The position numbers and the translations under genes are program-made. From positions 5,799,501 through 5,863,500 of the forward strand of contig OZ004583.1 of the NCBI GenBank assembly GCA_963924555.1: a stretch of DNA of 64,000 nt, in the 5' to 3' direction. This stretch comes from Crambe crambe. Its lineage: Eukaryota; Porifera; Demospongiae; Poecilosclerida; Crambeidae. The notes beneath the pieces are model-generated. The model had not been told where the DNA came from, did no database searches, and saw nothing but the letters and a program-made list of their open reading frames with translations. Shown here piece after piece: positions 1,334 to 55,000 of this stretch. The stretch's first letter is position 1; each line of letters starts with the position of its first letter.

Positions 1334-1396
1334 AAGATTTTGATGTTCCACTATGGAAGAGCTCAGAAGAATCAGATGAAGTAGTACCCTGCAGTG
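1334..1396 (-). CDS. Copy 1 Ser-rich 3' exon
   Basis: This 63-nt exon follows TTTTAG and ends at T|GTGAGT. It encodes SLQGTTSSDSSELFHSGTSK. The same exon, nearly base for base, is at 42977-43039. Splicing to the TATAG acceptor near 1227 would end the protein within two codons; another acceptor would lengthen it. The 3' end is unresolved. Confidence 0.5.
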
Positions 1397-4300
1397 CTAA
1401 AACAAGATACAGCTGCTGTCATGACTGTGTCATTAGGTAATAATTTATACTCACATTTTGATATTTTGTCAGCTGTTCCTTTCTGACCGATCTCCTCTAG
1501 AGCTTTTATCAAACTCTTCCAAGTGGGCTGACCGCTAGTTGCAAGGACATTGTCAGCTCCATTTAACCAGGCTTCCACTAATTCTTGACAGAGCAATTTC
1601 ATCTTCTTGAGATTTGGCCAGTACAATCCAAGAGCTCCACCAAGTAGCAGAAGTTGATTTTCAGTCAGGTCTCTCAAGCACATGGACACTTGATGGTGGT
1701 GAGTCATACCTGCAGGGTGAGTAGAGCAGTACAAAATATCTTGATAGCAGCTTTTCAATATAGCTAACTGGGCTATACAACTGGGGACACTTACCCAGAG
1801 CAGTATTCAAAATTGATGGTTGAACTTCTTGGATTGTTGAAACAGGCTCACTGCATTCTGAAAGGGTGAGAGTTCATAGCAGCCAAAATCATAAATTCGT
1901 AAGTTAATGATTTAAAAACATGTTCCTAGATTAGGGGATTTCCCTTTTTCGAAAGCAGTTACTGTCCCTTTACTGATAAACAGTAACTTCGCCCTGCTAC
2001 AGTAAGGATGAAATATTCTTATGGGAATTGAATGAGTTGTAGCTATCAGAGCTACCTAATGGAAAAAATATCTAGTTACATTCCAAGTATTTTATCCTTT
2101 TCAAAGAATATTTACGTAGTATTATCTGCATGTAATTTCACAATAAGTCTATATGCATGAATGTACAACACTTAACTGACATGCTGACCTTTCTTTGGTC
2201 TGAACCAGGATAAGCAATCCTCAGATAAAACACAGCTCTTGTGCTCACTTTCACAGTACATGATGTAGTCGTCATCCTCGTAGTCTGGATCTTGGACTTT
2301 GTGGGTAGAGGAACATGAATCACACTTGATACAGAAGTAATGTTGGGTCTTCAGACTGTCGTAGTGCAGATCTTTTACCGAAGATTTGATACTTTTATCG
2401 ACTATGTTGCGAATATCATTGCATAGATGGCTGATATGAACACGACGAGACTCGCAACAAGAGGGATGCAAAACAATTTCTAGAAATGAAGATGAAAATT
2501 TCAGAGTTATTCTGTCTTTAAAGCGACCAACACTGAAGGATACTTGGTCCCTGAAAATGGAGTCAGGAAGAAGTTCCCACTTAAGCTTGCTCTGGACTAT
2601 TTTTGAAAGTAAAGTGTTTATTAAAACACCAAATATCCCCTTTGGGCAGTGATTGCATTTGAACTCAATGTAGAGTGTGGGGATGTTAGAAACTGGTTCA
2701 GGTCTTTGTGATGCCTGGACATGGTTAAGGACACATGGGATGAAGTATCTTTTTTTTTCATTTTCCAATGAAGTGATTTGGGATATGATGCGGAGATGAA
2801 CAAGTAATTGCAAGAATGAATCTGGATCGATTCCATCTTCTGCTGTTATCACTTGCTTGAAAATTGAAGCTGAAATAATGCCCCTATGCTTAAAATCTGA
2901 AAGTTCTTGTCGGTAAAGTCGCTTAGAGGAAAATGTCTCAACAATGAGGTCTGTGACCTTATTGAAAAGCACTTGAGGTTCTCGTACGACGATATTATCC
3001 AAGCCTTTTACAGGAAAATACTTGATCCTTCCAATTCGGGTGTGAAGAAATCGCAATAGGTGCTTCACTTGGTCTTTACTGATGCCATACTGAGCAGCTA
3101 GAGACACACATTCATCAAAGGAAACAATGCTCTTCTTCATATTTTCGAAATCAAGGCTGAACAGCAAGTAGCTGATAGGATAGTCAATGGCAAACTCATC
3201 TCGACCAATTACTATTTCACTGACTCGTGATCGGATGCATTCAAAGTCCTCTTCACTCTTGCTGTAATTATCAACAGTGAACATCAAACTGTTGGATTGC
3301 TGATCTGCATACTGAACCAAGTGCTGGTATCCATGCTTACAAACTAGATCATTCAACTGTCGGTCTATCTCACTGATTTTCTCTTCAGCATTGGAACCAA
3401 GCAGATCCTTGTGTGTTCCTACTATGAAGACAAGAGGTTGGTGGGTCTTGACATCACTTTGGCCAGTTATATCCATGGCATCGACACTAGCAAGGCACTG
3501 CAGCAGAGCATCCTCTGTGCTGATGGAAGATACATACGAATTGATAACAGTTCTGTCTTTTTTCCGATATGATATCTTGAACTTGCTGCAGAGATCTTGA
3601 TCGATGCGAAAGAGGAAGAAGAATATGGATGGTCCAGATATCAGGAGAGGTACCATCTCTTGGAACTCCACTTGACCACCAGTATCAGTCAAGTAAATCG
3701 AAAAGGAGTTCTTTAAATACTTTTGAACTCTGTCGTAGCCATATTTACTTATTACCGATGAAATATTATGAATAAGTTTTGGTGGAGGCAAGAGTTGTCT
3801 CCTGGAGAGATCAGCTTTATCACTTGTTAGCATTTCTAAAGTGACAGAGCCACTGGTTTGACATGGAGTCGTAAAATGCGATACATGTGGAGATGTTACT
3901 GGTTGAAGTGGAACAGTGGATGGTGCAGGAGGAGGCACTGTTCTGGGTGTCATTGTTTTGGGTGTGATGGTTATGCTTTCCTTGTTCATTTGCCTCACAA
4001 CAGACACCTCAAACTCGGCTTCGGACCACTCCCCAGCCTTTAGTAGAACTGTAACTGATGCATGTGTGGCAGAAGAATCTTCTATTCCAACGTCCACTAT
4101 AATAACAGGCTCACAGACACCAGTGGAGGGAGAGAAGTCCTTTGGGACCTTGCGAACAAGGCGAGTGATTAACGAACTTTTTCCAGAACCAGGGGAGCCT
4201 AGAAAGATAGAATGGACTAATTTTCGTTCTATGTCTCCAGATTTGTTGATGGCTTCTTGTACCACATTAAGAAATTCCTTTTCATCTTGATCAGAATCTA

Positions 4301-7300
4301 CAAGTATAGCAAGAAACCATATCATTCATAATTATTGAGAAAAAACAACAACAAAGAAACAAAACAAAACAACAAACAAAAAACAAGAAGATGCACGTTA
4401 GAAAGCCATTCTCCAAATGTAGCGACAGCATGGAGAGATCATATTAGCTATGACACAGTGAGTCTACAGAATCTGATCTTTTTATTATCTTCTTCAAAGT
4501 TAAGGGGGGGGGGGGGGCCTATACCATTTTTAGGTGATCGGACATTTTGGTTCATAGCTCCTTCATACTACCCGCCATGACCTTGAAAATAGGCTCAAAA
4601 GAAAGCTTATTTCATACGCTTTCCAATGAGTATATTTTATACTACCATAGGACCCAACCATATAAGGTTACTGCTGATTAATCGATCAGCTCTCACTACA
4701 TAGGCAGCAGGAGCCTAGATTAGTTGTGTGCTGGAATGTCGGCCGGCCTGGTGTATGCAGTAATAATTTTTATCGCTAGCTGATTAGTGATTGGGTAAAG
4801 TGGGGTTCCACTTGAACCCCTACTTGGCCCGACATGTCACACCAAGAGTTAGGCATCTCTTGGTGGATGAGAAAGTTGGGAGGAGGGAGGGGAGAAAAGA
4901 ATATCTTTCCCTGATGGGTCTGGCTATCTAGCTGAGGCTGACTGCTGGATGACCACGTGTCGCTAGTATATAAACCATGGAGCATGCAGGATATCCTGCA
5001 GGTAGCCCCGCCTATCAATTAACTCCATTTGCTTAACTTTCATTTAAGTCAGACATGACCACGAAACAAGTTCACCACATATTTGTGGTGGACCTTTGAT
5101 ATTCACTTTATAGGCCTAGCTGCAGTACATGAACTTTTGAACTGAAACCCCCCAAAGAAAGAAAGAAAAAAAGTAAAACATTCACGTACTGTAGCTAGGC
5201 CCATGGAAGCTATAAAATGAATATCAAAGGTCCACCACCTGCTAGCAAACTTTTATCTGATGAATTATGTTCTTCAGGGTCAACAGTCTTTCTTCTTTTT
5301 TTCTGGTGACTTGATTTCAGGCTTCTTGATTGCAAGCAGCTTCTCCCACCTGAAAGTGAGCTGACATGGCAATTCTAATCCTCTAATTCTGCTCAAAAAA
5401 GTAAGGAAACAAGAAGGATGGAAATGGGATCAATCTTTGTTCTGTATATCCAGCCAACAATCCCTACATATACGTACATTACTACACTATAATCTGAAGC
5501 TACCCGACATATATGTAGGGATTGTTAGCTGGATATACAGAACAAAGATTGATCCCATTTCCATCCTTCTTGTTTCCTTACTTTTTTGAGCAGTGGTCAT
5601 CCCTACATCTTTTTTTCATTTCACGAAATGCTTTTTCCCTTACTTGTTCATATAATTACATGCTTCAAATAGTGAGGAGAATTATATGATTTCCTCCAAT
5701 GACAGTATTTAATTTGACAGTATCCGAAAGTGCGCAAAATAGTCATGCATGCCAGCTGCTAGATTTAGCATGACCATGAGTTCTCCAGTTGTGTGAGGAG
5801 CCATCATGTCTACAAAAGCGTATGGACTCCAATTCTTGGGAGTGCAAGAAGAGAGATTGATGTTGACAGCGATCCTTAATTATGCTGCGAAGAATTTCAG
5901 CCGCTTGTTCTCTCTTTCGTATTAGTGATGGATGGCTCGTTGGTTCGTTGCACTATCACAAGCACTTTATCAATGAGGGTTAATGGTACTCTATTAACCC
6001 AGGTTAATAGGCATGTGGAATGAGCATGTGCACAACTGAGAAGGCTCATGGTTGCACAATAGGAGTGATACTCAAGCAGTGGTCAGACTGAGAAGCAGAA
6101 GGCAAGTGTAGGATAGCAGAGCCGAAAAATTCACCCACCCGCCCACTTCCTGTGTACCCTAACAAGGCTCGGGTCTTGTTAGGACCAAGTGCTGGGCACA
6201 GCATGGGTATTCACCACCCAACATGTCTCATCCAAGGTGAACTTAAGCAGCATAAAACAGGATGGGGTGGGGCATGACCAAATAATTATAGCAACCACAT
6301 CAGTTGCTAAGGGGACAGGGACATTGAGCCCTGTGCCTAGCACAGGTCCCAATCCATATAGTTAGATTAGAAAAATGGTATACTATATCGTAGGCAAGTA
6401 ACATGATATATTTTACAAAATTATACACCCTCATCTGGATGTTTTGAAGGAGACGTGGACCATGTTCTACATTGAAATTATAAGAACAGTAAACTTGCTT
6501 CATGACAAGTTCAGATTTGTACCCTTGAGCCTGGTATCCAAGCAATAGAAATGCAAACATTTTCTCCCAATAAGTTGAAGTTGATTAGTGTGTTGACCTG
6601 CTTTGAAACATTAGTTAGCTTGTCCTTTAATCAACACTCTATCAGCTGTGTGGGTAGCATGATGCTTTCTTGATTTTTGACTTGTAGATTTAGAAATAAA
6701 TGCTTTGTTCAAGAGTTACAGTACCTTATGCTTACCTCTAAGACTGCTGCGATAAATTAAGGAAGGGAAATCTGTGTGTAACTACTAATGAAGTAAGCCA
6801 GTAGACTTCTAACTGACATGAGAGTGTGGCAAAGCTAAGAAGCAACTGTCTATACAGTGGCATAGGAAGACGATTTAGAGACCCCCAGGAAAGTTTAGGA
6901 TTTTAGGACCTTTCAGATTTAACCTGATTTTAGTCATAAGAAGTGAAAATATGAAGATGTAAATTAAGCTCTCAAATTACCAAGTTGGACTGGCCCTTAT
7001 GGGGTAGTAACTTGTTACCACATACACAATATTCACATACCATACAGCAGGATAATTTTGGTGGGGATAAAAATTCGGTAATTTCGTATCTATCGAAATT
7101 TTTTCTATTTCCCACTGTTTAGATGTTCGTACATTCAACCATGGCACTATACGTAGAGCTAGCTAGATTCCATCAATTAAGAAGTTGCCACGATCATGAA
7201 GAGGGCTATACCTGAAGAAATGAAGGCCAAAAATAGTGTGTAAGCCAAGTGAAAAAGAAAATTCAGCAGCTATGAAGCGAATTCCGTAGATATTGTTGTA

Positions 7301-10300
7301 CCGTACCAAATAAAAGACTACCATAATTCTTCATCTGTATTTATCCTTTGATGATTAACGAAATATTTTATCTCCGAAAATAACCCGCTGTACGGTACAA
7401 AATTCATAAAACTTTCTGTACATAATATGCACAGTAGCTATGTGAAACGTAATGAAACCATGCATGACTGTAATAGCAGCAACATTACCCCTTTAAGTTT
7501 CAATGATAGGCAGTTATTGGTGTGTGTAAGTCTCACCTTTGACATACTTGGTGGTCACATCCTCAGCAAGTGCATCGTAACCTGCACGCTTGAGCACCCT
7601 GGCCAATCTCTCCCAATCAATAACAGGGTTAAGACGCACCATGATCTCAGCTAAGGCTTTCTTTGGTGTAGTACTCCCACTGGACTCAATTCTTTCCATT
7701 AGACATAGATATCGTGCCACTTTCTCCCAATCGTCCACTTCCTCCAACACCTTGTTTATTCTCTCAATGCTGAAGTTGGAATCTGTCAATGATGAAATGA
7801 AGATGTACAGGTATAATTATTCCAACATGATTACTCAAAAACTAAGTGACTATCCCATGCATTGTAGAATGAGAATTAGAATAGTATTGTGCACATAGCT
7901 ACACATCATACATGAGTCAATAAATTTCCCCTACAGCATGTGCACACCTGTACTGATCATTCTGGCTATAGCTGTAATGGATCACTAAAAACAACTAACT
8001 CACCTCTAGTACAATAATCACAAGCTTTAATGGCCACATCGACTTCCTTAACTAAAACTTCTTCTCCATAGAGTGCAGATGTAGCAATCTCCTTCCAAGT
8101 AGGTTGCTCTCGATAGCTATTGATGTAACACATGGCAGCTACTTTCACTTGCTGCTCCTCACTGGGTATACAGGACTTAATACGATTCATTAGATCATAA
8201 AATAGTCTGTCCCAATCGGAATCTTCCACTCTGGATATGCTGGATATAATGTCCAATGGTGACTCCTTTGCACTCATCAGTACAGTCGTCAGGTTCTCAA
8301 CTGTCATTGTGGGGTCTGCAGGGGAAACTTGATTACAGCTAGAACTGAATGGAAATGATGACCTATGACACAATAGCTACTTTAATCACTTAAAGGGAAT
8401 TGTCTATGGAAGGGATAGTTTGTGTCATGAAACCATAGAGTCATTTTGGATTCCACTGTATCCCATATGAACCATACACTGCAATTTAGTTGCTATGGCA
8501 TGTACACATGCTATTGAGATCTTACAACTCTAACAAAGCATGGAAAGGGTTTTAATAGAGGGTACAAAGTTGAATTCAAGTGATCCATATACACTGTTTG
8601 AGAATAAGTGTGTTCTAATTGTATTGCAGCCATACAGCTAGCTGATGGGATGTAATAGTTGACAGAGTCAGTCACTATGAAATGGAAACAAGTTCCATCA
8701 GTTTACACTCAACACTTAATACAGTTCTTAAAATAGTCCAGCTATATGTACTATAATGGGAGGGGTTAAGTGAGAATCTGAGAATACAATCATCTAATGA
8801 ATCAATCTGCCTGAGCCAATTACAAAAACTCTGAGGAGTATGCCATGGGTAGAATCTTAATAAAGATATTAGCTAGCACACAGTCAGTCAATCAGTCTAA
8901 AGTTAGGAGAGGTATGTGTGTAATAGAATAGGGGATTTCCCCTAAATTACCTGTCACTGGCTCTGCAAAGTTTCTGATGCTGTCAGCATATTTGTGTTGA
9001 TTCATTGTATCCATTCTGCTTATGAGTTCTCTCCATGTAGTGATAGCTCTAGCAGTCAGGAATTCGTCCAAAGAGTAGTAGTAGTTTCCCTCATCCTCCA
9101 GAAGTACATATTTCTGCACATTCTCAACAGAGAAATCTGATCCTAAAAGAGAATAATAATATTACTTAGTCGGGATTCTAAGCATGCAATGTACGTATGC
9201 AGGGCCTAACTTTTTAAAACTCCAGGAACTATAATTCTAAGTGTCAGTTCTGATATTAGATAAGTATGAATGCTATTAATGCTACTATTATTATGCATAT
9301 GAGAAATTTTATAGGAATCCCATTCCTTAGGTTATATAGGCTAATGAGATTCTAGTGGTCACATGGTCATACCAAAAAGATATAGTCCACTTAGATTTCA
9401 CTTGGTAAGTCAAAAGACAACTCAAGAGTTTCTAAACTATAGCCAGCCACTCACATCAAGATCATTACATTCCTGGATCCTATATGGACCATGTCAACAC
9501 TACTAGAATTTCTTACACTGTTAGCTTACAAAGTATCAACAAGAAATGTATCTCTCACCATTAGGAAGGTATTTTGATGCCTGTTCAGCTGCAATCTCCT
9601 CCCCACAGTGAGACAGTGCTGTCACCACATTCCCCCAGGTCACATAGGGGCACACATGGACTAGGTGATGAACGAGGGCTCCTTTCTGATCGTGAGCAGA
9701 CTTGATCTGTGATATAGCATGGTCAGCGATCCCCATGTACTTTGATATGGTCTCCCAGTCCTCCACCTCCTTTAATATCTCACTTAACAACTCAGCAGTA
9801 AATGTTGGATCTGCTAAGAGGAAAAAGTAGTCTCAAGTGTATGCCCAGGAACAGTGATGACTACGTATGTCGTACTCATCACTTTATTTATATGTATCAT
9901 ATAGCACTAAATTTTCATGGTTTTGCAATAGAAGTGTGAACCTCTAATTATTTTTCAATACCACCAAATCTGCAAAAATTTACCCCTCGAAAAATTCCTG
10001 CAACATGGTAGCTTACTGTCCCCTGACCTTTTGAGAAGTTAGTCATGGCACTCTCAGCAGCCTTTATCTCTCCAACTTCATAGAGCAGTAGGGATAATAA
10101 CTTCCAAGAGGGACAACCATGACTGGTTATGTAAAGAGAGGCAGCAGCTCGTATCTTCTCCTCTCCACTTAGGGATGAGATGCGGGAGTGAACAGACGGA
10201 GGACAGCCACCAAAAGAATCCTTCTGTTCCTTCAGCACTGATGACACATCTCCCTCTGCTATCTGCATGAGTACTGCTGCTACATTCTCTACACTCAAGG

Positions 10301-13300
10301 TGGATTCTACAGGAGTAAACACAGCATGTTGCATGACATGGAACATAAAGTACAACCATGCAGGTTAGGTGCTATTCAGATGGCTGCATGTATGAATGAA
10401 TCACACTCATCAAGACTTAGTGAAGTCTGCATGTGCTCATGCAGTCATCCTTGTATGTCTCATGCAAACATTTCTCATAAGATAATGCATGGAGGTAAAG
10501 TATAGAGCTCATATTGTGTAGCATTTTATTTTAAAGGAGTAGAACTTTTTTGTGGATCTTAAAATATGAAAATGGAAATTAAAACAAATACTCAAATCTT
10601 CCTACCAGTGCCACCTGACTGGGTACTGATACTAATTGTCAGTACTGAATCTGCAGTTGATTAAGTTTTAAGTGACTGTTAATTGCTCAGCCTTGCCATT
10701 TTCATTCTGGGTGCACATTATTTAGAGTACTGTGCAGCAATTAGCTGGATTGATATTTGATACAAATGTAGGCATACATAGAGGCCGAGTTTTAAGTATG
10801 GTGAGCATAAATTGACTATAGTCAGAGCGACAAGAAAACCAGAACACACAAACACATATGTATGAATATAGCCTGCTGCATAAGGGGTAGGTGCCAAGAT
10901 TTGTTAAAATACTAGATGGTCAATCTGCAAAAGTTGTACAGTGGAACCTCCAATAAAGGACCCTCCAAGAAAAGGACAACCTCCCAACAAAGGATGCTCT
11001 TTTGGGCCCCTTTCCCATAGCATTAGTACATTTTTAACCTCCGAGAAAAGGATAACCTCTCTGCAAAAACAAAGTGGCTGATCCCAAAGTGTCCTTTACT
11101 CGGAGGTTCCACTGTAATGAAAATTGAGCTCCTCCATTACAAATTACTATGTAGTATCTATAGGTGGGCATTAATATAAGGGGTCATGATGGCAAAATAA
11201 AGTTATCTTGGCAATGGACTCTTCCAGATGATCATTACCCTGACATGCTTCAAACAATGTTCAAACTTATGCAACTTTCTCAGGACTTCAAGCTAAAGTC
11301 AGGTCACACACAGAGAGACCTGAACTCTGGGCTATAATAATATCAGCTAACAATACAGTCATGCATGATGATCATACCTTGTGGTGGCTCAGCAAACTTT
11401 CGTATGTTATCAGCAACACTCCCTTCTATTCTATCGAGAGCCCAAATAAGTCTCCTCCAGGAAGAAGGTGCTCCCTTTCCTGCTAGCCAGGCACTGAGAA
11501 CCAATTCAACACTAGATGCAGGAGCATCTTCCACTGATAACCATTGTTTCAAAAAATGTACTCGGACATCCTCTATCTCCAGTATTTGTGGGATGTACTT
11601 GGTGATGTTAGGTAGTGTCAACTGTGGGACTGCATGGGAACACAAAATAGTAGAACACATGATCACTACATGATCCAGTCAGAACATAATACCAGACAGT
11701 TCACCATTGCAGTGCATACCATGGTTAGTACATCACTGCTCACTAAACATAGGGATAGTACATTACTACACACTGTACTTCACTCCACACCATATAGGAA
11801 TAGTACTTCAGGATTTTATGTGGGGGGAGGAATTATAGGGAGGTTTGTGAGGTTATAGGGGGGCAGGAAGTCTTGATGTCACTATTATTTTAGACCTTGG
11901 TTACATGTAATTTGTGTATGTAATATTAGCAAGTTTAACTTTGATGTGTGTACACTGAAAGTATGTGCAACACATTTACATAGTTCTCTTGATACACACC
12001 CCTAAGGAAGATATGGGATCATAACTGCATGACAATGAGATGCTGAACAACCTGAACACTTTAGCTAATATCTGTCTTCTATTGTTGTTGGAATAGAAAG
12101 ACAGACCACAAATGAAGATAGAGAAAACTCACTTACTGAGAGAGAAAAACTTGATTAAACTTATTAATGAAAATAGCTAGTGATAGAACTAACAGATAAT
12201 GATTTAGAATAAGATGTATGGAATAAAAAGAAGACTAGTTGTGTGATTTTACAAGGGGGCAGCTGAGGGGAGAAACCCTCTTGAAAGAAACCAAGATCAT
12301 ATAGGGATAGTACATCACTGCACACCATATAGGGATAGTACATCACTGCACACCATATAGGGATAGTACATCACTGCACACCATATAGGGATAGTACATC
12401 ACTGCACACCATATAGGGATAGTACATCACTGCACACCATATAGGGATAGTACATCACTGCACACCATATAGGGATAGTACATCACTGCACACCATATAG
12501 GGATAGTACATCACTACACACCATATAGGGATAGTACATCACTACACACCATATAGGACATCACTACACACCATATAGGGATAGTACATCACTGCACACC
12601 ATATAGGGATAGTACATCACTACACACCATATAGGGATAGTACACCATATAGGGAGACTCTCAGCTCTTCCAATTATGAGCATTTCAGGTGACTCTTGCT
12701 TTATAACTTTTAGGGAAGTCATGAACATAATTGGTAAAAGGTAATGATACTTCAAAAAAATTAAGTGATAATTTTATGAACCACTTACTCTGATCAGGTG
12801 TCACCACTTGGAACACAGGAGAAGTAGAAGGAGAAGTAGGAGAATGAGGCTGAGGAGGATGAAGAGTGGAAGTATGGGAGGTCTCGGGTACCATATTTAG
12901 ATGGGGTGTGGTTAGTGGAGTGGTGTTTGGTGATGGTGATATCAGTGATGGAGTGACTGGAGGTCTTGGGACTGATAAAACCTACAAATAATTATGGTAA
13001 AACAGTAACTTGAATCTTCCTACTTGAAGACAAGTTCTTTCATGAAACATTTGTCAGCAGACAACAATTGAGTTATTGACTGACCTCTGATCTGAGGGGA
13101 AATGGTGGATTGAAAATAGGGAACCAGATTTCTTGGGTTATGTTGTGTGTCTATTATTATCTGGTGACCCTTGGGACTTGTCCTGGTTACAGGGGTGGCA
13201 AGTGACCCAAATTTCAGGTGTCCAGATTAGAGGGATATAGCACATATGCTCCAAAAACATTTGTAACATGAAATCAGGATCCAGTTATCAGGAGTATGAA

Positions 13301-28161: not shown

Positions 28162-28845
28162 TTAATAGCATGTAGCTAGTCCTTGAGGGTGCATATGCAT
28201 AGGTTGCTCGCTCACATAATCATTGGGTTGGATTCCATACATTTCATCTGCTACTCTGTTCGATGAATTGTAGTTAGCCAACATCCCTTGCATCCACAGC
28301 TGTAGTGGAGAGAGTCCATTTGCAGAACTCATTGGATGGTGGTTCCAACCATCCACAAATGTAGCTAGTGTAGAATTGATGTAAGGAAGATAAATGAAGT
28401 GTAAGCACCAGAGGTGTACTGAATCATTGGTAGTCAGCATTCCAGTATCCTCTAGATGATAAAACAAGTGGTAGAAAAGAGAAATGCAGCCTGTAAAGAG
28501 GTCTCTCCAAAACCGTTCTATTCTTTGATTGTGGACACTACGCCCACTGATAATGCTACCTCGTCCAACTCCCCTCAGTGGATGACTAAGCATGAAGTAA
28601 CCAACTTCATAGTTTTCCCCACCTCTATCACATCTAACCCTGATGGCAATCCAAAAGAGTCTACAGCTTGGATAAACAGTGATAACACTGTGTCAGCTCT
28701 ATTATTATTTGAGCAGTGACAATAGAGGGGTAGCCTTGAATAGCAGCATGTATTACCAGGTTCCATCTACAACAAAATAAAATAGCTAATGTATAAACAG
28801 CAAAATACAGGTAGCTAACCAATGAGCACCTGCATGCATGTGCCA

Positions 28846-28910
<65 letters not shown>

Positions 28911-29823
28911 AAGCTACATGTATAGCTACCGGATTAATTTATGATTTCCATCGATATGCCATAACATATTGGGCCCAGGAACAGAATATCTTCTTCTTTG
29001 TATGGTATGAATCCATCTACTCATCACACCAACTGGATCTATCCTCCTAAGGGAATCTCTGATCCTGCTCTCTTGTAACCTATGACCCATGGCAGCAAGG
29101 TGTCCTTTGAGTAAATGGTAACCACAATTTGGATAGTGACGTTGTAAATCTGAAACAATCCTATCCAATTGTTCATCATCAATTGTACTATAGGTGCTCC
29201 TGATGGTTATACCAAATTCCATCATGCAACGTCTCACTGTACTTATGGAAGTTTGAAGTAATTGTGCCACTTGAGGAACAGAAAAACGATTGCCAATCAG
29301 GTATTCCAGCACATTATGGGGAATACAAATAATGTGCACCATATGCACTGGGGGCTGTATCTATAATATCCGCAATGTTATTCAATGTATGGACAACTAA
29401 CTCAATTAGAGGAACAATTCCTGGAATGCTGTCCACTAAGGTTACAAGGATATGTTGCACACGCTCTGCACCAACGATAAGAGATTCTATTCCATCTAAA
29501 CTAGGTGAGCCATCCTCTAATACTCTCGAGAAATTTCCAATGAGAAGTCTAACCTGTTCACTCAAGATCTCCATCACGAAATGCCCTGCGTGTCTAGAAT
29601 TTTGCGGTACAATTTCACGCATGCGCAATTGCAGTGTGTATCTACAAAAAAAAAAACAAAAAAAAACAAAAACTGCAGAGGAGCTGTAAAGCGAATAGAT
29701 CGGCTTGCCATCTCCGTTCTCCACCATGGCGTTTTCTAATGACGAGAGCAGAAGCAGCGAAGGAAATCTTAGCGAACAATTATAACGTTGCTTTGCTGCT
29801 CTTAACCAGATTGCCAACGCCAT
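28162..29823 (-). pseudogene. Integrase-core (rve-type) gene relic
   Basis: Several minus-strand segments belong to one integrase-core family. An N-terminal region lies at about 29360-29600, and a helix-turn-helix plus the first catalytic segment at 28926-29348 (FSVPQVAQLLQTSISTVRR, then LWHIDGNHKLIR at a GT donor). A middle segment follows at about 28575-28790, and the C-terminal catalytic part with GRSVHNQRIERFWRDLF at 28162-28593. The family occurs as intron-bearing multicopy genes in animals; its parent element type is uncertain. The copy looks eroded, with at least a couple of breaks. A CT microsatellite interrupts it in an apparent intron. Confidence 0.6.
28849..28905. repeat. (CT)n microsatellite
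   Basis: An uninterrupted run of about 28 CT units lies in an apparent intron of the integrase relic. Confidence 0.95.
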
Positions 29824-32626: not shown

Positions 32627-32851
32627 TGTAATGACCCTACTTCATGACCCTACTTCATATTATTGTTATTGTATCATTTATTGCACATGCTCAGTATTGT
32701 ATCATATTGCACATGCTCCGTAACTAGTAGTTACATAACAGTGTCCCTTTTCATAATAAAACGAGTAAGACCTTATTTTCTGAGTCTCTCGGAACGTCTT
32801 CATTTACAGCTAGTTCTACCTTTTCACACGTCCGAAGACCCAGACGTGACA
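32627..32851 (+). repeat. Left LTR
   Basis: This 225-bp terminal repeat contains an AATAAA at 32755-32760 that could serve as a polyadenylation signal. It carries a tandem ATGACCCTACTTC near its start. Confidence 0.9.
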
Positions 32852-32887
32852 ATTGGCGACCCTTGCCAGGACTGAGCTGTTAATTAA

Positions 32888-38440: not shown

Positions 38441-38546
38441 ACTGTATTTCAAGGAACAGTGACTATTAAAATATTTTATGTATCACCTCATATTAGCTCT
38501 TATTGTATAGATGTCGAGGACGACTTCTCAACTAAGTGAGGGGAAA

Positions 38547-43039: not shown

Positions 43040-46000
43040 CTAAAACAAGATACAGTATATAACAGTTGCTGTCATGACTGTGTCATTAGGTAATAATTTA
43101 TACTCACATTTTGATATTTTGTCAGCTGTTCCTTTCTGATCGATCTCGTCTAGAGCTTTTATCAAACTCTTCCAAGTGGGCTGACCACTAGTTGCAAGGA
43201 CATTGTCAGCTCCATTTAACCAGGCTTCCACTAATTCTTGACAGAGCAATTTCATCTTCTTGAGATTTGGCCAGTACAATCCAAGAGCTCCACCAAGTAG
43301 CAGAAGTTGATTTTCAGTCAGGTCTCTCAAGCACATGGACACTTGATGGTGGTGAGTCATAGCTGCAGGGTGAGTAGAGCAGCATATCTTGATAGCAGCT
43401 TTTCAATATAACTGGGCTATAGAACTGGGGACACTTACCCAGAGGAGTATTCAAAATTGATGATTGAACTTCTTGGGTTGCTGAAACAGGCTCAGTGTAT
43501 TCTGAAAAAGGATGAGAGTTTCATAGCAAGCCAAAATTATACACTCATAAGAAAAACATGCACAGAAAGATTTAGGGGATTCCCCTTTTTCGAAAGGGGT
43601 TACTGTCAGTAACTTCCCTCCCCTCCGTTACAGAAAGGATGAAAAAAATTGAATGAGGTATAAGCTATCTATGGATATTGTAAAAATAATACCTTTAAAC
43701 AAATCACTTTTTCCACACAATTCTTCATCCTCTGAAAATATACATAAATATTACTTTTATTCTTTGAAAAGGATAGAATATTCGGATTATAGCGTAAGCT
43801 GCCAATTATCGACCATACTTTGTACCTCGCACCATATCTCCCTCACTGATGGTCGTCAAAGTCTCAAACAACAACCATAGGAAAGATAATTTCATCCTCT
43901 ATAATGTCATATAAATTATTTTTCTCACAATTGGATAGAAATTTTGCTATGCTGAATCTACTACGTCAAGTGTGAAATCATTTATCGACCACCGACACCA
44001 ATTTTCGACCACCCGTTGAAAATCATAATATCAATCATCGTCTGTTCCATTCTTTCTTTCAGTTTTGCTCCACTACATGTTAGGGCCCTTAAAAAGATAC
44101 TTTTATACTATTCTATGCTATAAAATACATCATCATAACAAATTTTATAAAAAATGAACGAAGCATTTCTACCATAAACTGCTTCACAATTTAACAGTGG
44201 AATGGAACTGCTGCAGAAGCTCTCCTTTTTGTTGGATTCTGGTGATACTTTTCGGAGACAGTCTTCATTGGTCTGTGTTTCATATTCCTACAGAATCCAG
44301 TCATAATCTATCCATACATCCTCACTAAACAAGCACCAAATTCGACTAAGTCAATAGCTTTCGTACCTTTTAAGCGATCTTCTGGAGCCATGGCGATAGG
44401 TAACATGAGCTAGTAACTTACTTTCATACTGCAGTTGATAAATACGTGCTGTTGAAGTCCTGTTTTCTCTCTAGAGCTTGTAAGTTTTCCCCATATTTTT
44501 CAATGCAGCCATTTTCTAAAACTCCGTTTAAGTTTGTTTACTACCGTAGACTTTCTGTATACTATGTAGTCGATAATTGGTGCTGCCACGGTCGATAATA
44601 GGTGCTGGTCGATAATTGGCGGCTTACGCTAACTAGCCCCCCCCCCCCCCCAAAAAAAAAAAAAAAAATCATTTTACTATACATACATACATACATACAG
44701 CATAGCCCTACACTATACATACCCTTTGGTTGGAACCAGACTAGATTGTCTTCAGATAAAATACAGATCTCGTGCTTTTTACTGCAGTACATGAAGTAGT
44801 CTGCTTGCACCCAGCCTTGATATTTGACACAATGATTCAATGAACACAGTTCACACTTACAACAAAAGTAATGTTGGGTCTTGGCATTGTCATAGTGAAG
44901 ATCCTTTACTGAAGAATGGATGCTCTTCTCGATAACTTTACGAACATCGTTACATAGATAACTGATGTGAGCGTATTTTGATTTGTGTCCAGATGGATGT
45001 AGAATTACTTGCAAATGGGATGCAAAGAATTTAAGAGTCACTCGATCTTCATAGCAACCGACACGGAACGATACTTGGTCCCTGAATATGAAATCTGGAA
45101 GAAGTTCCCATTTGAGACAGCTTTTGAGAGAAGTAGTGAGCAAGGTGTTTATTAAAACACCGAATATCCCCTTAGGACTATGATTACATTCAAACTCAAT
45201 GTAAAGTGTGGGGATACTGGATACTCTGTCAGGAGTTTGTGACGCCTGGACATGGTTAAGGACACATGGGATGAAATACCGGTCTTCTTTATCTCTTGAT
45301 GTGGTGATTTGTGATATGATGCGGAGATGCATCAGTAATTGCAAGAACGAATTTGGATCGATGCCATCTTCTGCTGTTATCACTTTCTTGAAAACTGAAG
45401 CTGAAATGATGCCCCTATGCTTAAAATCAGAGAGCTCTTGTCGATAAAGCCGTTTAGAGGAAAATGTCTCCACTATGAGGTCCGTAACCTTATTGAAAAG
45501 CACTTGAGGTTCTCGTACGACGATGTTATGCAAGCCTTTCACAGGAAAATACTTGATCCTTCCAATTCGGGTGTGAAGAAATCGCAATAGGTGCTTCACT
45601 TGGTCTTTACTGATGCCATACTGAGCAGCTAGAGACACACATTCATCAAAAGAAACAATGCTCTTCTTCATATTTTCCAAATCAAGGCTGAACAGCAAGT
45701 AGCTGATTGGATAGTTAATGGCAAACTCATCTCGACCAATTACTATTTCACTGACTCGTGATCGGATGCGTTCAAAGTCCTCTTCACTCTTGCTGTAATT
45801 ATCAACAGTGAACATCAACCTGTTGGATTGCTGATCTGCATACTGAACCAAGTGCTGGTATCCATGCTTAGAAACTAGATCATTCAACTGTCGGTCAATC
45901 TCACTGATTTTCTCTTCAGCATTGGAACCAAGCAGATCCTTGTGTGTGCCTACTATGAAGACAAGAGGTTGGTGGGTCTTGACATCACTTTGGCCAGTTA

Positions 46001-49000
46001 TATCCATGGCATCGACACTAGCAAGGCACTGCAGCAGAGCATCCTCTGTGCTGATGGAAGATACATAAGAATTGATAACTGTTCTGTCTTTTTTTCGATA
46101 CGATATCTTGAACTTGCTGTGGAGATCTTGATCGATGCGAAAGAGGAAGAAGAATATGGACGGTCCAGATATCAGGAGAGGCACCATCTCTTGAAACTCC
46201 ACTTGACCACCAGTATCAGTCAAGTAAATCGAAAAGGAGTTCTTTAAATACCTTTGAACTCTGCTGTAGCCATATTTACTTATTACCGATGAAATATTAT
46301 GAATAAGTTTTGGTGGAGGCAAGAGTTGTCTCCTGGAGAGATCAGCTTTATCACTTGTTAGCATTTCTGAAGTGACGGAGCCACTGGTTTGACATGGAGT
46401 CGTAGAATGCGATGATACATGTGGTTGAAGTGGAACAGTGGATGGTGTAGGAGGAGGCATTGTTCTGGGTGTCATTGTTTTGGGTGTGATTGTTATGCTT
46501 TCCTTGTTCATTTGCCTCACAACAGACACCTCAAACTCGGCTTCGGACCACTCCCCAGCCTGTAGTAAAACTGTAACTGACGCATGTGTGGCAGAAGAAT
46601 CTTCTATTCCAACATCCACTATAACGACAGGCTCACAGACACCAGTGGAGGGAGAGAAGTCCTTTGGGACTTTGCGAACAAGGCGAGTGATTAGTGAACT
46701 TTTTCCAGAACCAGGAGAGCCTAGAAAGACGGAATGGACTAATTTTCGTTTTATGTCTCCAGATTTGTTGATGGCTTCTTGTACCACTTCAAGAAATTCT
46801 TTTTCATCTACTTCATCTTGATCAGAATCTACAAGTATTATGTAATGTGATAACATACGTTATGTTGATTAGGAAATTTTGTTGTTAAAAAATTTCGTAC
46901 TGCTCATGATCTATGAAATTAAAAATCAATTATTATTTATAATGAATAGCTGAAATAGGAAAATATGCTAGCCAGTATGGTGGAGGTGCATTTTTCAAGG
47001 GAGCTCAAGCTGAAAGTGAGTGTGTCTATGGTTCACTCTGTCATGAAGGATTAGAAAGAAAAGAGCAGTCGAGAATGAAGGTAAAGGGAAAGTCTTGCCG
47101 TGGATCTTCTTGGAGAACATTTGGACAGCAATGTTCAGTTATATTGAAGAAGGTCAGGTAGGGAGTATCAGCTAGGATTGCAATGGCAGCTTGGCATGGA
47201 ATTTTATAACAAAAACATATTATTGGAGGAGTTCGGAGGTCACATATCTCTATCTCAACATTGACAGTCACTCCTTAAATTTGGTTCCAGCTAATGGACC
47301 TATCAGTCAACAAACCAACCAGCTAAAGAATTTCACAGGGGTAAGTTCCAGCAGCTGGATCCCTGACAATGAAACAATGAAATTATCAACACCCCATGGG
47401 GTTAGAGAAGGCTATGAAAATAGTTAGTGCAGAAGTTCTTTTTGCTTCAAGAAGCAGCTGCTAAAACACCATGTGATGAATGTTGAAATACACACTAGCT
47501 CATGTGCTCTAACTTGCACTGATAATACATATTGTGTATATGAGAATTAATATCAGCTGACCAGAGGCCAACTAACAAAATATTTCAGCTTGAAAATAAT
47601 TATTTCCTAACTATTCAATTCAATTTTGACTGGAGCAGTAGCTAGTTTCTGAAGATGAGGACAATATTCCACTGACACAGGTAGAAATTGCCAGTCTTCC
47701 AAATGTTACTAATGTACAATTTCAAGCAAGATGTTGTAAGTTGTTAGAGCTTGTTAAAGTTTACAAGCTACATACAAAATGTACATGAAGCCTAATTTTC
47801 AAACCAAATTTGAGATCTTGATAATATGCTTCAAATAGGGCAGGGAGAAAAAGCGGAATGGCGGAAATGGCGGAAATGGATGTAAAGCCTTAAGGGACTA
47901 ACTGACTGGTATATTGGTATTGATAAAGGGTTAGGAAATTCGAAGGTGTTAATCTGAGCATGCCCAGAAGAGAACATAGAAGCACAGGGCAGGGAGAAAA
48001 AGCAGAATTTCCGCCATTTCTGCCATTCTCCTGCCCTTCTTGTCATGGGACCAGTAGGTCCTGTGACCTGATTGATTGGGGTGGTGATTAGGTTGGATAT
48101 GTCTGACTTTGAAGATTCTGTTTGAAGTTTGCCTTTGGGGAAGAAGGCTGTTTCCTATTGATAGTTGTGTCCCAATGGATTTCATCCAAGTTGTGACTAT
48201 GGAAGTAAGAGGAGGCCAAGTCAGCTGCTTCTAGTGCAGTTTTAGTCTCTCTCTCTCTCTCTAACGAAGGCCTGTGCTCTAAACGGGAGCAGTTGTAGTA
48301 GCTTTTCTGTTACTATTTGACTTCTCACCTCCTGGATAGTGGGCCCAGGTGTGAATAGAGTTATCTTCTTGGTGAGGGTATTCACTGTTTCCCTCCAAGT
48401 GGAGCCAGATAGCTTCTGCTGATGCGCATTATTAAGAATTAGCCGGCTGTCATGACTGTGCTGTCAAGCTTTGGTAGTTAGTGGATAAAGCAGCATAAGA
48501 CTCTAGAAGACAAAGGCACTAGGCAGAGAGCTCAAAACTTCTACAATCCACTTAGATAAGCCTAGCGCCTCTATATGACAAAAGGCTGTAGAAAACAATC
48601 TAGCTTGATTAATTGGAGCATGCGCATTATGCACGCGCACAGCGCTACTATTTCGGGACACGTACGTACCATACGTACGCCTGAGGCATTTTGGAGTGTA
48701 GACCTAGATATAAGCAAGAAAGCAAGTATTCCTATAGCTTTTAGAGCTGATAGGCTCTAATTCATTTGTACTGAAAGACTAGATCACTATTTTCTTGCAT
48801 GTGAATGACGTGGGAAAAAGTGTTCAATTCTTCTTTCTGCATGTGGACCCTAAACATACTGCAGTCTTATAGAGGCACCTGCTACACTGAATGTGACAAG
48901 CTATCAAGCTAGTCAAGAGCACTCCATCAGCAATAGTGAAGCAATTCCAGTTCTACAGTTTGTTGTTGTTGTTGTTGTTATTGTTTTGTTGTTATTGTTG

Positions 49001-52000
49001 TTTTTTTGGGGGGTTGTGTTTTTTTCTCGGTAGCTACAGGTTTAGTCCTGAAATTCTAGCTAAAATATGGTAGCCAATATGGTGGAGGTGCAGCTGCTCA
49101 ACATTTTTCAAGGGAGTCCAAGCAGAAAGTGACCAAGTCAACTGACTGCATTGAAGGATTGAAAAGTGAAGGTAATGTGAAAGTCTTGCCACAGGAACAT
49201 TTGTACCATAGAATCCAGTTATATTTGAAGAAGGTTAGAGAGGAAGGAGGAGCTCTATCAGTTAGGATTGCAATGGCAGCTGGGCATGGAATTTTACAAC
49301 AAAACCAAATTAGAGGAGTTTGGAAGGAAACCATCAATTTTTGATAACATCTAATTTCAGATACGATTATCTCATGAATGAGGAACAGTGACAAGCTGAA
49401 TATTTGTAGTAGTAGAACCAATTAAGATATGTAAATGGGAAGCTGACAATAATCCTTCTTCATACAACAATCGCTAAAAGCGAAGTTAAAAACAACAACA
49501 ACATGGGCTCCAGTTTAGCTAGAATTCAAGGGTCAGAGTTTTAGCTCCTGGTTTGTTCACACTGGCTGTTAGAAAACAGCTGCTAAACTCGGTCAATTTT
49601 TTGGCTGAAGTGTATTAGGAGGAAGAAAATATTTCCCACAGGCGTAATACATGTAGCAAAAAAAAAAAAAAAGTTTTCTAAATATTCAATTCAATTTTGA
49701 CTGGAGCAGTAGCTAGTTTCTGGAGATGAGGACAATATTCCACTGACACAGGTAGAAATTGCCAGTCTGCCAAATGTTACTAAATGTACAATTTCAAGCA
49801 AGATGTTATAAGTTGTTAGAGCTTGTTAAAGTTTACAAGCTACATACAAAATGTACATGAAGCCTAATTTTCAAACCAAATTGAGATCTTGATAATATGG
49901 TTCAAATATGTTACCATATAGCTGGAAATATTGATGGGAATTATATACGATTTCCTCATAAAAATACCAATGACAGTATTTAATTTGACGGAAGAGCACA
50001 AAATAAATAATGCACGTGCGTTGCACATGTGTGCTGTGTACAGCTAGCTATCATCATTTAGCATGGATGCTTTAGAGTTCTCTAGTTGCGTGAAGGGTCA
50101 TCACGTCTAAGAAACCGTATGGACTCCAGTTCTTGGGGGAAAATTAGAGTGTAGAAGAGCTATCCTTATGCTGTTGCTGTTCTTAAGACGGCTGCAATTG
50201 TTGGACACATCCCTTGAAGGATTTCAGCCGCTTGTTCTCTCTTTCTTTGCAGTGATGGCTTTGCAGGTTCAAGGCACTACTGCTCTAATTTACCCCAGGG
50301 AAGGTCTATCAGTGTGACTTTCTCTCCAGCAAGCACACGTCTTTATCAGGCAGGACTGGATTCTCTTTCTTCAGTAGAATACACTTCAGCAAAGACATAC
50401 AGTATGACAGCTGCATGTAGTGGTGTGCAATAAATGGCATGCAATATGTGCATGCGTACGTATTGCGCGAAGTTAATTAAACCATGTGACTTTTTGACGG
50501 TTTTATTTTTGGTGATATGATACTTAAACCACCAAAGCGTCAAATTAAAATCTTTGTATACATTTCTGGCCACACAGTAGCAACCACATCAGTTGCAGCA
50601 AAGCACTCGAGCCCCATGCCCAGCACAGGTGTGTAGAGGGCCAGGGGTATAAAATATCGTAGGCAAGATAATAACAATCATACACCCTCATCTGGATGTT
50701 TTGAAGGAGATCTAGACCATGATCTAAATTAAACAGTACTTCCTTCATAACAAGTTCCAACTTTTCAGATTCATACCATTGAGCCTGTATCCAAGCAATA
50801 GAAATGCAAATACCTTCTCTGAAGTTGATTAGTGTGTTGACCTGCTTTGAAACATTAGTTAGTGTGTCTATTTGCTTGTCCTTTAATCAACACTCTATCA
50901 GCTGTGTGGGTAGCATGATGCTTTCTTGATTTTTGACTTGTAGATTTAGAAATAAATGCTTTGTTCAAGAGTTATGGTATTTATGCTTACCTCAAAGACT
51001 GCTGCGATAACTTAAGGAAGGGAAATCTACTAATGAAGCAAGCCAGTAGACTTCTAACCGACATGAGAGTGTGGCAAAGCTAAGAAGCAACTTTCTATAC
51101 AGTGGCATAGGAAGATGATTTAAAGACTTCCTAGGAAAATTTTGATTTAACCTGATTCAGACCTCAGAAGCGCAAAATAAGAGAATGAAAATTAAGCTCT
51201 CAAATCACCAAGCTGGATTGGCCCTTATGGGGTAGCTATGTTTGCTAACTTGTTACCACATACACAATATTCACATACTTACAGATTCAAAATTCATAAA
51301 ACTTTCTGTACATAATATGCACAGTATGTGAAACGTAATGAAACCATGCATGACTGTAATAGCAGCAACATTACCCCTTTAAGTTTCAATGCTAATAGGC
51401 AGTTATTGGTGTGTGTAAGTCTCACCTTTCACATACTTGGTGGTCACATCCTCAGCAAGTGCATGGTAACCTGCACACTTGAGCGCCCTGGCCAATCTCT
51501 CCCAATCAATAACAGGGTTAAGACGCACCATGGTCTCAGCTAAGGCTTGCTTTGGTGTAGTACTCTCACTAGACTTGATTCTTTCCATTAGCGATATAGA
51601 TAGATATCGTGCCACTTTCTCCCAATCTTCCACTTCCTCCAACACCTTGTTTATTCTCTCAATGCTGAAGTTGGAATCTGTCAATGATGAAATGAAGATG
51701 TACAGGTATAATTATTCCAACATGATTACTCAAAAACTAAGTGACTATCCCATGCATTGTAGAATGAGAATTAGAATAGTATTGTGCACATAGCTACACA
51801 TCATACATGAGTCAATAAATTTCCCCTACAGCATGTGCACACCTGTACTGACCATTCTGGCTATAGCTGTAATGGATCACTAAAAACAACTAACTCACCT
51901 CTAGTACAATAATCACAAGCTTGAATGGCCACATCTACTTCCTTAACTACAACTTCTTTTCCATAGAGTGCAGCTGCAGCAATTGCCTTCCAAGTAGGTT

Positions 52001-55000
52001 GCTCTTGATGGCTACTGATGTAACACATGGCAGCTGCTTTCACTTGCTGCTCCACACTGGGTATACAGTAATTAATATGCTTCATTGGATAATAGAATGG
52101 TATGAAGTCATCGGAATCTTTCACGTTGGATATAATGTCCAATGGTGACTTCTTTGCACTCATCAGTACAGTCGTCAGGTTCTCAACTGTCATTGTGGGG
52201 TCTGCAGGGGAAACTTGATTACAGCTAGAACTGAATGGAAATAATGACCTATGACACAATAGCTACTTTAATCACTTAAAGGGAATTGTCTATGGAAGGG
52301 ATAGTTTGTCTCATGAAACCATAGAGTCATTTTGGATTCCACTGTATCCCATATGAACCATACACTGCAATTTAGTTGCTATGGCATGTACACATGCTAT
52401 TGAGATCTTACAACTCTAACAAAGCATGGAAAGGGTTTTAATAGAGTGTACAAAGTTGAATTCAAGTGATCCATATACACTGTTTGAGAATAAGTGTGTT
52501 CTAATTGTATTGTAGCCATACAGCTAGCTGATGGGATGTAATAGTTGACAGAGTCAGTCACTATGAAATGGAAACAAGTTCCATCAGTTTACACTCAACA
52601 CTTAATACAGTTCTTAAAATAGTCCAGCTATATGTACTATAATGGGAGGGGTTAAGTGAGAATCTGAGAATACAATCATCTAATGAATCAATCTGACTGA
52701 GCCAATTACAAAAACTCTGAGGAGTATGCCATGGGTAGAATCTTAATAAAGATATTAGCTAGCACACAGTCAGTCAATTAGTCTAAAGTTAGGAGAGGTA
52801 TGTGTGTGATGGAATAGGGGATTTCCGCTAAATTACCTGTCACTGGCTCTGCAAAGTTTCTGATGCTGTCAGCATATTTGTATTGCATATCCATATCCAT
52901 GCTGCTTATGAGTTGTCTCCATGTAGTGATAGCTTTAGCAGTCAGGAATTCTTCCAAAGAGTAGTAGTCCCCCCAAGGTACAAATGATGTATATGATGTA
53001 TATTTCTGCACATTCTCAACAGAGAAATCTGATCCTAAAAGAGAATAATAATATTACTTAGTCGGGATTCTAAGCATGCAATGTACGTATGCAGGGCCTA
53101 ACTATTTAAAACTCCAGGAACTATAATTCTAAGTGTCAGTTCTGATATTAGATAAGTATGAATGCTATTAATGCTACTATTATTATGCATATGAGAAATT
53201 TTATAGGAATCCCATTCCTTAGGTTATATAGGCTAATGAGATTCTAGTGGTCACATGGTCATACCAAAAAGATATAGTCCACTTAGATTTCACTTGGTAA
53301 GTCAAAAGACAACTCAAGAGTTTCTAAACTATAGCCAGCCACTCACATCAAGATCATTACATTCCTGGATCCTATATGGATCATGTCAATACTACTAGAA
53401 TTTCTTACACTGTTAGCTTACAAAGTATCAACAAGAAATGTATCTCTCACCATTAGGAAGGTACTTTGATGCCTGTTCAGCTGCAATCTGCTCCCCACAG
53501 TGAGACAGTGCTGTCACCACATTCCCCCAGGTCACATAGGGGCACACATGGACTAGGTGATGAACGAGGGCTCCTTTCTGATCGTGAGCAGACTTGATCT
53601 GTGATATAGTATGGTCAACGATCCCCATGTACTTTGATATGGTCTCCCAGTCCTCCACTTCCTTTAATATCTCACTTAACAACTCAGCAGTAAATGTTGG
53701 ATCTGCTAAGAGGAAAAAGTAGTCTCAAGTGTATGCCCAGGAACAGTGATGACTACGTATGTCGTACTCATCACTTTATTTATATGTATCATATAGCACT
53801 AAATTTTCATGGCTTTGCAATAGAAGTGTGAACCTCTAATTATTTTGCAATACCACCAAATCTGCAAAAAAATTACCCCATGAAAAATTCCTGCAATATG
53901 GTAGCTTACTGTCCCCTGACCTTTTGAGAAGTTAGTCATGGCACTCTCAGCAGCCTTCATCTCTCCAACTTCATAGAGCAGTAGGGATAATAACTTCCAA
54001 GAGGGACAACCATGACTGGTTATGTAAAGAGAGGCAGCAGCTCGTATCTTCTCCTCTCCACTTAGGGATGAGATGCGGGAGCAAACAGACGGAGGACAGC
54101 CACCAATAGATTTCCTCTGTTTATCCAGTACAGATGACAAATCTCCCTCTATCTGCATGAGTACTGCTGCTACATTCTCTACACTCAAGGTGGATTCTAC
54201 AGGAGTAAACACAGCATGTTGCATGACATGGATCATAAAGTACAACCATGCAGGTTAGGTGCTATTCAGATGGCTGCATGTATGAATGAATCACACTCAT
54301 CAAGACTTAGTGAAGTCTGCATATGCTCATGCAGTCATCCTTGTATGTCTCATGCAAACATTTCTCATAAGATAATGCATGGAGGTAAAGTATAGAGCTC
54401 ATAAAGTTCATATTGTGTAGCATTTTATTTTCAAGGAGTAGAACTTTTTTGTGGATCTTAAAATATGAAAATGGAAATTAAAACAAATACTCAAATCTTC
54501 CTACCAGTGCCACCTGACTGGGTACTGATACTAATTGTCAGTACTGAATCTGCAGTTGATTAAGTTTTAAGTGACTGTTAATTGCTCAGCCTTGCCATTT
54601 TCATTCTGGGTGCACATTATTTAGAGTACTGTGCAGCAATTAGCTGGATTGATATTTGATACAAATGTAGGCATACATAGAGGCCGAGTTTTAAGTATGG
54701 TGAGCATAAATTGACTATAGTCAGAGCGGCAAGAAAACCAGAACACACAAACACATATGTATGAATATAGCCTGCTGCATAAGGGGTAGGTGCCAAGATT
54801 TGTTAAAATACTAGATGGTCAATCTGCAAAAGTTGTACAGTGGAACCTCCAATAAAGGACCCTCCAAGAAAAGGACAACCTCCCAACAAAGGATGCTCTT
54901 TTGGGCCCCTTTCCCATAGCATTAGTACATTTTTAACCTCTGAGAAAAGGATAACCTCTCTGCAAAAACAAAGTGGCTGATCCCAAAGTGTCCTTTACTC

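What the first reader, a model, noticed from the sequence alone, without database searches (positions are those of the whole stretch)
7537..11629. Death-fold exons diverge far faster than their introns between the two gene copies
Comparing 7.5-11.6 kb with 51.4-55.6 kb by eye, the introns are almost identical: about 3 changes over about 390 bp at 9.15-9.54 kb, and about 9 over 635 bp at 8.32-8.95 kb. DD5 has about 25 amino-acid replacements and a 3-residue indel in 100 residues, and DD1, DD2 and DD4 are similar. DD3 is conserved. Frames and splice sites stay intact. This is the opposite of normal constraint and suggests diversifying selection, or sequence exchange limited to exons, as in immune recognition genes.
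Basis: seen in the sequence. Interest (0 to 1): 0.88.

Follow-up and report, generated by a model that had tools for sequence, protein, structure and literature searches.

The report
Hypervariable death-domain GTPase gene cluster
In an unnamed animal-like genome, a cluster of related signalling genes keeps its non-coding introns almost identical between copies while small surface patches of the encoded protein differ strongly, a pattern expected of genes that recognise variable targets.

Summary
Confirmed, and stronger than reported. The two window copies belong to a cluster of which I compared 20 copies. In five exons replacement sites differ about 5 times more than introns; E3 is conserved. 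Clearest case: one recent pair (L010/L011) has introns 7/2685, Roc-COR exon 4/2217, E3, E5, E6 0/798, but E1 26/240. Codon models find diversifying selection in E1, E2, E4, E5, E6 and not in Roc-COR. Silent sites of the variable exons also exceed introns (3x), so selection on point mutations alone is not enough; variable segments are mosaic between copies. The array's introns are about 9 times less diverged than Roc-COR silent sites, so the array is homogenised by exchange while surface patches stay different. Against: simple Nei-Gojobori dN/dS is only about 1, and recombination can inflate the codon models. Only E6 (and its homologue E3) is supported as a death domain; E5 gave no fold match. 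Closest processes: fungal het-d/het-e and brown-algal ROCO genes. A role in immunity or self/non-self recognition is inferred; the host is unidentified.

The parts
11378..11629 (-). W1 exon E1 (DD1), hypervariable
   Evidence: (borders)
10028..10306 (-). W1 exon E2 (DD2), variable in its first half
9559..9810 (-). W1 exon E3 (DD3), conserved, weak Pfam Death match
8951..9142 (-). W1 exon E4 (DD4), hypervariable
8004..8315 (-). W1 exon E5 (DD5), hypervariable, helical, fold not assigned
7537..7782 (-). W1 exon E6 (DD6), hypervariable death domain
2175..4325 (-). W1 frame holding the Roc-COR GTPase exon, purifying selection
1375..1806 (-). W1 frame downstream of Roc-COR, conserved in W2, no Pfam Death match
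55277..55558 (-). W2 exon E1
53921..54196 (-). W2 exon E2
53451..53702 (-). W2 exon E3
52837..53034 (-). W2 exon E4
51899..52201 (-). W2 exon E5
51426..51677 (-). W2 exon E6
44565..46859 (-). W2 frame holding the Roc-COR exon
43043..43402 (-). W2 frame downstream of Roc-COR
7398..12331 (.). island of near-identical introns shared with 51288-56232; edge about 140 bp beyond E6

Best explanation
A cluster of Roc-COR GTPase genes whose upstream six-exon helical / death-domain array is the variable, recognition-type part. Shown: (a) replacement sites in E1, E2, E4, E5, E6 differ several-fold more than introns; (b) Roc-COR of the same genes is under purifying selection; (c) the array's introns are far less diverged than Roc-COR silent sites, so the array has been homogenised between copies; (d) variable segments of exon and sub-exon size are shared between copies in conflicting combinations. 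Inferred: gene conversion between copies spreads the array backbone and moves short variable tracts, and diversifying selection keeps new combinations at surface residues while removing change elsewhere. Further inferred: these surfaces bind a variable partner (pathogen molecule, non-self allele or another array), and Roc-COR switching turns binding into a death-domain signal, inside the cell.
For: Replacement .084, exon silent .053, intron .017 in 11 copies. L010/L011: introns 7/2685, Roc-COR 4/2217, E3, E5, E6 0/798, E1 26/240. Site models: 2dlnL 50-130 in five exons; Roc-COR at most 3.6, omega .23-.36. Roc-COR silent divergence 8.6 times array-intron divergence. Mosaic: L009 equals W1 at E4 (0/189) but L015 at E6 (0/249); W2 matches L021 at E5 and E6 (2/300, 2/249) but not at E4 (39/186). 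PHI P .001-.006 in five exons with a 30-base window. Silent divergence falls with distance from hypervariable codons. E6 model pLDDT 95, best fold matches death domains.
Against: Nei-Gojobori pN/pS is .76-1.35, not clearly above 1. PHI is not significant for E2 and E6 with a 60-base window, nor for introns. No whole donor tract was found for L010 or L011 E1, and 10 of 37 changes have a private state. Conserved E3 also passes the nominal M2a cut (8.0). No RNA, population or functional data; 5' exons not found; host unidentified.
Confidence: 0.62

Rival explanations
1. Ordinary recent duplication followed only by positive selection on point mutations, without sequence exchange.
For: Strong site-model signal in exons only; private sites 3-7 per copy and exon.
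Against: Exon silent sites exceed introns 3.15 times (1.94-4.76); Roc-COR silent divergence is far above array introns; relatives change between exons.
Confidence: 0.1
2. A targeted diversification process acts on the exons themselves (local hypermutation or templated copying), in the germline or in somatic cells, with selection second.
For: 46% of exon differences are in runs of two or more bases against 15% in introns; sites with three or more states 25% against 4%; exon silent sites raised; L010/L011 E1.
Against: Exon singletons show no single mutator signature by eye; 27 of 37 L010/L011 changes have both states in other copies; silent divergence more than 10 codons from hypervariable codons (.019) is near the intron level.
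Confidence: 0.1
3. Same evolution, other function: the varied surfaces are private assembly codes that keep each paralogue's death-domain signalling separate, rather than receptors for foreign or non-self molecules.
For: In E6 the selected sites lie on helix 56-65, at the end of helix 18-24 and in helix 39-49, surfaces I recall (no call) as death-domain assembly interfaces.
Against: No interaction data; insulation does not obviously favour reshuffling between copies.
Confidence: 0.1
4. Assembly artefact or haplotypes with errors, or decaying pseudogenes under no constraint.
For: Some copies or exons are broken: L025, L026, L018 E4, L017 E1.
Against: 108 of 118 exon instances are open with AG/GT borders; changes are concentrated in exons and indels between open exons are multiples of three (broken exons left out beforehand); copies lie at separate places, in both orientations, with flanks that differ between subfamilies; Roc-COR is constrained.
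Confidence: 0.03

Closest known systems
Fungal het-d/het-e (NWD family) allorecognition genes, Podospora anserina (PMC1805685; abstract seen)
   Same: Gene family under concerted evolution between members, with repeat units exchanged and a few surface residues under diversifying selection.
   Different: There the variable part is a WD-repeat domain; here it is an exon-encoded helical/death-domain array on a Roc-COR protein. Function in allorecognition is known there, not here.
Brown-algal ROCO genes (PMC11378527; abstract, section 11 and first part of section 13 seen)
   Same: ROCO genes proposed as immune receptors, with symmetric-phase exons for the variable domain and positively selected surface sites.
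   Different: Theirs are LRR exons of 72 bp shuffled in number within genes; here six distinct exons stay in fixed order and exchange is between genes, at the same exon.
RPP8 plant NLR family (PMC6771003; abstract seen)
   Same: Gene conversion between paralogues combined with balancing selection creates diversity.
   Different: Different proteins; three loci, shown with population data.
Snake small serum protein genes (PMC6609765; passages seen)
   Same: Coding sequence evolving fast against low intron divergence (for one pair KA/KS 1.74 with intron KN .065).
   Different: Small extracellular proteins; no conversion island described in the passages seen.
Animal death-domain / TRADD-N expansions including the sponge Amphimedon (PMC8195603; passages seen)
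   Same: Lineage-specific expansions of proteins with N-terminal death-like units in sessile marine animals.
   Different: No Roc-COR array and no intron/exon contrast in the passages seen.

Membership tests
ROCO (Roc-COR GTPases) | COR domain | tested here: met
   PF16095 COR-A 38.8 bits (W1) and 42.1 (W2), cut-off 35.3
ROCO (Roc-COR GTPases) | Roc GTPase domain directly before COR | tested here: inconclusive
   PF08477 Roc 20.2 and 20.8 bits, below its cut-off 27; match at the P-loop
Death domain (E6) | Sequence profile match | tested here: met
   18 of 18 members of alignment A1 (15 E6, 3 E3) match PF00531 at E up to 0.1, best 1.2e-6; W1's own E6 17.2 bits is below the cut-off 22.6
Death domain (E6) | Six-helix death fold | tested here: met
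   AlphaFold2 pLDDT 95, six helices; best Foldseek matches p75NTR and FADD death domains, probability .97-.92, TM about .65, but E-values only .31 and worse
Death domain (E5) | Six-helix death fold | tested here: inconclusive
   pLDDT 68.6, six helices; none of the 39 listed Foldseek matches is a death domain
NLR receptors | NACHT domain and LRR | tested here: not met
   No NACHT or LRR family among Pfam hits of the ten frames scanned; the 5' end of the gene was not found
Brown-algal-type ROCO receptors | Variable LRR exons | tested here: not met
   Array exons give no LRR hit
het-d/het-e-like diversification (as a process) | Concerted evolution between members plus diversifying selection at few surface residues | tested here: met
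   surface position only for E6
Allorecognition / immune receptor | Allelic polymorphism and non-self or pathogen dependent response | not testable with these tools

The most novel reading that the evidence does not exclude
An animal recognition system in which a death-domain array, normally a constant signalling part, is itself the hypervariable recognition surface, joined to a Roc-COR GTPase and diversified by exon-restricted exchange or copying among about twenty clustered genes; possibly the basis of self/non-self recognition in this animal.
Probability: 0.35. Interest if true: 0.92.

Novelty: new variant of a known kind. Interest (0 to 1): 0.74.

Why it matters
Recognition genes of early-branching animals are poorly known, and death domains are usually treated as constant signalling parts. 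A gene cluster in which death-domain and related helical exons vary like receptor surfaces, with introns as a built-in control, makes the origin of such diversity directly testable: sequencing six short exons and their introns in several individuals would separate point mutation, conversion and targeted diversification.

Tried and rejected
Plain recent duplication as the reason for similar introns: rejected, since Roc-COR silent divergence is far higher. Nei-Gojobori dN/dS as main statistic: reported but not relied on, because multi-base codon changes raise its silent count. Constraint on introns as the cause: not directly excluded; in the more divergent copies L025/L026 introns I2, I4 and I5 are much shorter than in the others. 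Intron I3 was left out of the 11-copy intron average because insertions in some copies disturb its alignment (all-pair p .074). Rows dropped before counts: L025 and L026 from the rate counts; exons not open (L017 E1, L026 E1, L025/L026 E2, L025 E3, L018/L025/L026 E4, L025/L026 E5); no E1 was found in L024 and L025. The 11-copy set is 11 of 18 core copies, chosen for standard intron lengths. Two neighbouring genes of the C3 ROCO cluster were checked for the same array: in the 9.9 kb fetched for each, exon proteins gave only weak matches (best E .03), and the one scanned by Pfam has ankyrin repeats and ZU5 instead. The host was not identified; that it is an animal, perhaps a sponge, is inference. 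Literature: eight searches listed no title on a hypervariable death-domain Roc-COR family, but several had more papers than were listed (15 of 742; 10 of 204; 15 of 93; 20 of 53; 10 of 30; 15 of 20); a ninth, on intron/exon contrast, found one unrelated paper. Subscription papers are mostly not in the library.
Full report
What is there. The window lies in a 9.5-Mb contig of a 143-Mb genome in 119 contigs. The gene runs on the minus strand: six exons E1-E6 (11629 down to 7537), all phase 1-1 with AG/GT borders, then a Roc-COR frame (2175-4325; COR-A above its Pfam cut-off, Roc below) and a further conserved frame near 1.4-1.8 kb. The array looks like a doubled three-domain unit: E1 resembles E4, E2 resembles E5, E3 resembles E6. 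The second copy (E1-E6 at 51426-55558, Roc-COR at 44565-46859) has the same plan. A DNA search of the genome gave 29 matches at 20 places, and I examined all 20 copies (2 in the window, 18 loci): 17 within 5.77-6.36 Mb of the same contig, in both orientations, and three at 4.57-4.98 Mb. Of 118 exon instances found in them, 108 are open with AG/GT borders. A Roc-COR protein search gave 66 matches in the genome, a lower bound, with another cluster on C3. Gene models rest on open frames, splice borders and conservation between copies; there is no RNA evidence, and the 5' exons were not found.

W1/W2 introns: 10/1071, 6/217, 3/416, 9/635, 1/221; replacement codons 17/80, 8/91, 3/83, 15/60, 24/100, 9/81. 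I then used counts that do not depend on mutation paths: second codon positions (p2, always replacement) and fourfold sites in codons with the same first two bases (p4, silent). In 11 copies with standard introns (of 18 core copies): p2 .084 (CI .066-.101), p4 .053 (.034-.074), introns I1, I2, I4, I5 .017 (.014-.020); E3 p2 .007, p4 0. Over 136 overlapping pairs (introns I4, I5; exons E4-E6) p2 exceeds intron in 134, p2 exceeds p4 in 129, p4 exceeds intron in 127. Over eight non-overlapping pairs: 206/2810, 55/1049 and 115/7827, Fisher P .012 (p2 over p4), 7e-13 (p4 over intron), 5e-47 (p2 over intron). Against this, Nei-Gojobori ratios for the five variable exons are .76-1.35, and for E1 only 16% of 55 pairs have pN above pS; a plain dN/dS table would look near neutral.

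Selection. The same code on five Roc-COR blocks gives 3.6, 0.8, 0.0, 0.1, 0.1 and overall omega .23-.36. Recombination breaks the one-tree assumption and can inflate the test; E3 also passes the nominal cut. Roc-COR, itself patchy in silent divergence, is a partial control. In E6 the sites above .95 are Y24, C26, K41, E57, R61, R65, D69; 57, 61 and 65 lie four apart on helix 56-65 of a confident model (pLDDT 95). Hypervariable columns are rich in H, D, Y, R, E, N and poor in L, I, A, P, M, V, as for exposed surface.

Homogenisation and exchange. In the same 11-copy set Roc-COR silent divergence is .145 (copies with a held Roc-COR exon) and array introns .017; over 91 pairs of 14 genes Roc-COR p4 exceeds array introns in 90 and Roc-COR p2 is below p4 in 90. 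So the array, not the gene, is young: a homogenised island that in W1/W2 ends about 140 bp beyond E6. Over all 153 pairs the median end of homology after E6 is 138 bp, though pairs within a subfamily extend over 1-2 kb. Inside it, relatives change from exon to exon. L009 matches W1 in E1, E2, E4 (1/249, 1/276, 0/189) but differs from W1 by 19/243 in E6, where it equals L015 (0/249). W2 matches L021 in E5 and E6 (2/300, 2/249) but not in E1, E4 or Roc-COR (33/252, 39/186, 211/2121). PHI tests with a 30-base window reject no recombination in the five variable exons (P .001-.006), not in E3 (P .91); with a 60-base window E2 (P .09) and E6 (P .05) no longer do, and introns have too few sites or are not significant. 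Copies read as mosaics of about 7-14 short shared segments per exon, 49-73% of the number in shuffled columns, plus 3-7 private sites.

The clearest pair. L010 and L011 lie 168 kb apart with introns 7/2685, Roc-COR 4/2217 and E3, E5, E6 0/798, yet E1 26/240 with an indel, E2 7/270 and E4 4/195. The E1 changes (14 replacement and 3 silent codons) begin about 50 bp inside the exon, while the 1049 aligned bases of intron I1 differ at one base and one indel. Of 37 exon changes, 27 have both states in other copies and 10 have a private state. Part of L011's tract matches L012 over 22 variable columns. This fits replacement of short tracts inside the exon better than scattered mutation, but no whole-tract donor was found among the copies held.

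Silent sites. Exon p4 is 3.15 times intron divergence (1.94-4.76) and falls with distance from hypervariable codons.096 at them.053 at 1-2.035 at 3-5.059 at 6-10 (out of order).019 beyond 10 codons; rank test P .002 and split at 10 codons P .03, but split at 5 codons P .12. So blocks, not only replacement sites, are older or more often replaced than introns. Runs of two or more differing bases (46% against 15% of differences) and sites with three or more states (25% against 4%) agree, but do not separate exchange from local hypermutation; singletons show no single mutator signature by eye.

What it is. A ROCO-family gene by its COR domain. The array contains a death domain at E6 (profile, model and fold match; Foldseek E-values are weak, best .31, although the best-ranked natural proteins are death domains) and by homology at E3. 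E5 has a weaker six-helix model without a death-fold match; E1, E2 and E4 are open. So 'death-fold exons' is right for part of the array. Two neighbouring genes of the C3 cluster lack this array in the stretches fetched; the one scanned carries ankyrin repeats and ZU5.

How it most likely works. Gene conversion among the copies keeps the array backbone alike and moves short variable tracts; selection favours new surfaces facing a variable partner; Roc-COR is conserved as the switch. The evolutionary part is largely shown, the molecular part inferred. The closest process in print that I saw is fungal het-d/het-e (PMC1805685, abstract) and the closest gene family brown-algal ROCO genes (PMC11378527, abstract and sections). 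That this is an immune or self/non-self receptor is a good guess, not a result.

Noticed in passing
window 32627-38772 (+): Two 226-bp direct repeats, 100% identical (32627-32852 and 38547-38772), flank a 1850-residue open frame (32888-38437): looks like a very young LTR-type element. Observed only.
   Followed up: no
window 41022-41274 (-): A frame-broken E6-like exon outside both gene copies; similar broken E6-like pieces occur elsewhere in the cluster (near C5 6.016, 6.091, 6.255 and 6.310 Mb), possible relics of older copies.
   Followed up: partly
L047, L048 (G000:C3, near 7.71-7.73 Mb): Second ROCO cluster: L047 has ankyrin repeats, ZU5 and Roc-COR in consecutive frames, a different upstream part joined to the same kind of Roc-COR.
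   Followed up: partly
window 12298-12647: Minisatellite of units of about 28 bp just upstream of the array, near the other edge of the homogenised island.
   Followed up: no
L019 exon E6: In-frame 36-bp insertion that looks like a local duplication of neighbouring codons inside the variable part.
   Followed up: no
window 2175-4325 against 44565-46859: Roc-COR itself is patchy: fourfold differences 24/210 in the first 500 codons but 24/49 in codons 500-700, suggesting an older recombination breakpoint.
   Followed up: no
window 28165-29892 (-): Open frames that look by eye like transposon integrase parts; no search run.
   Followed up: no
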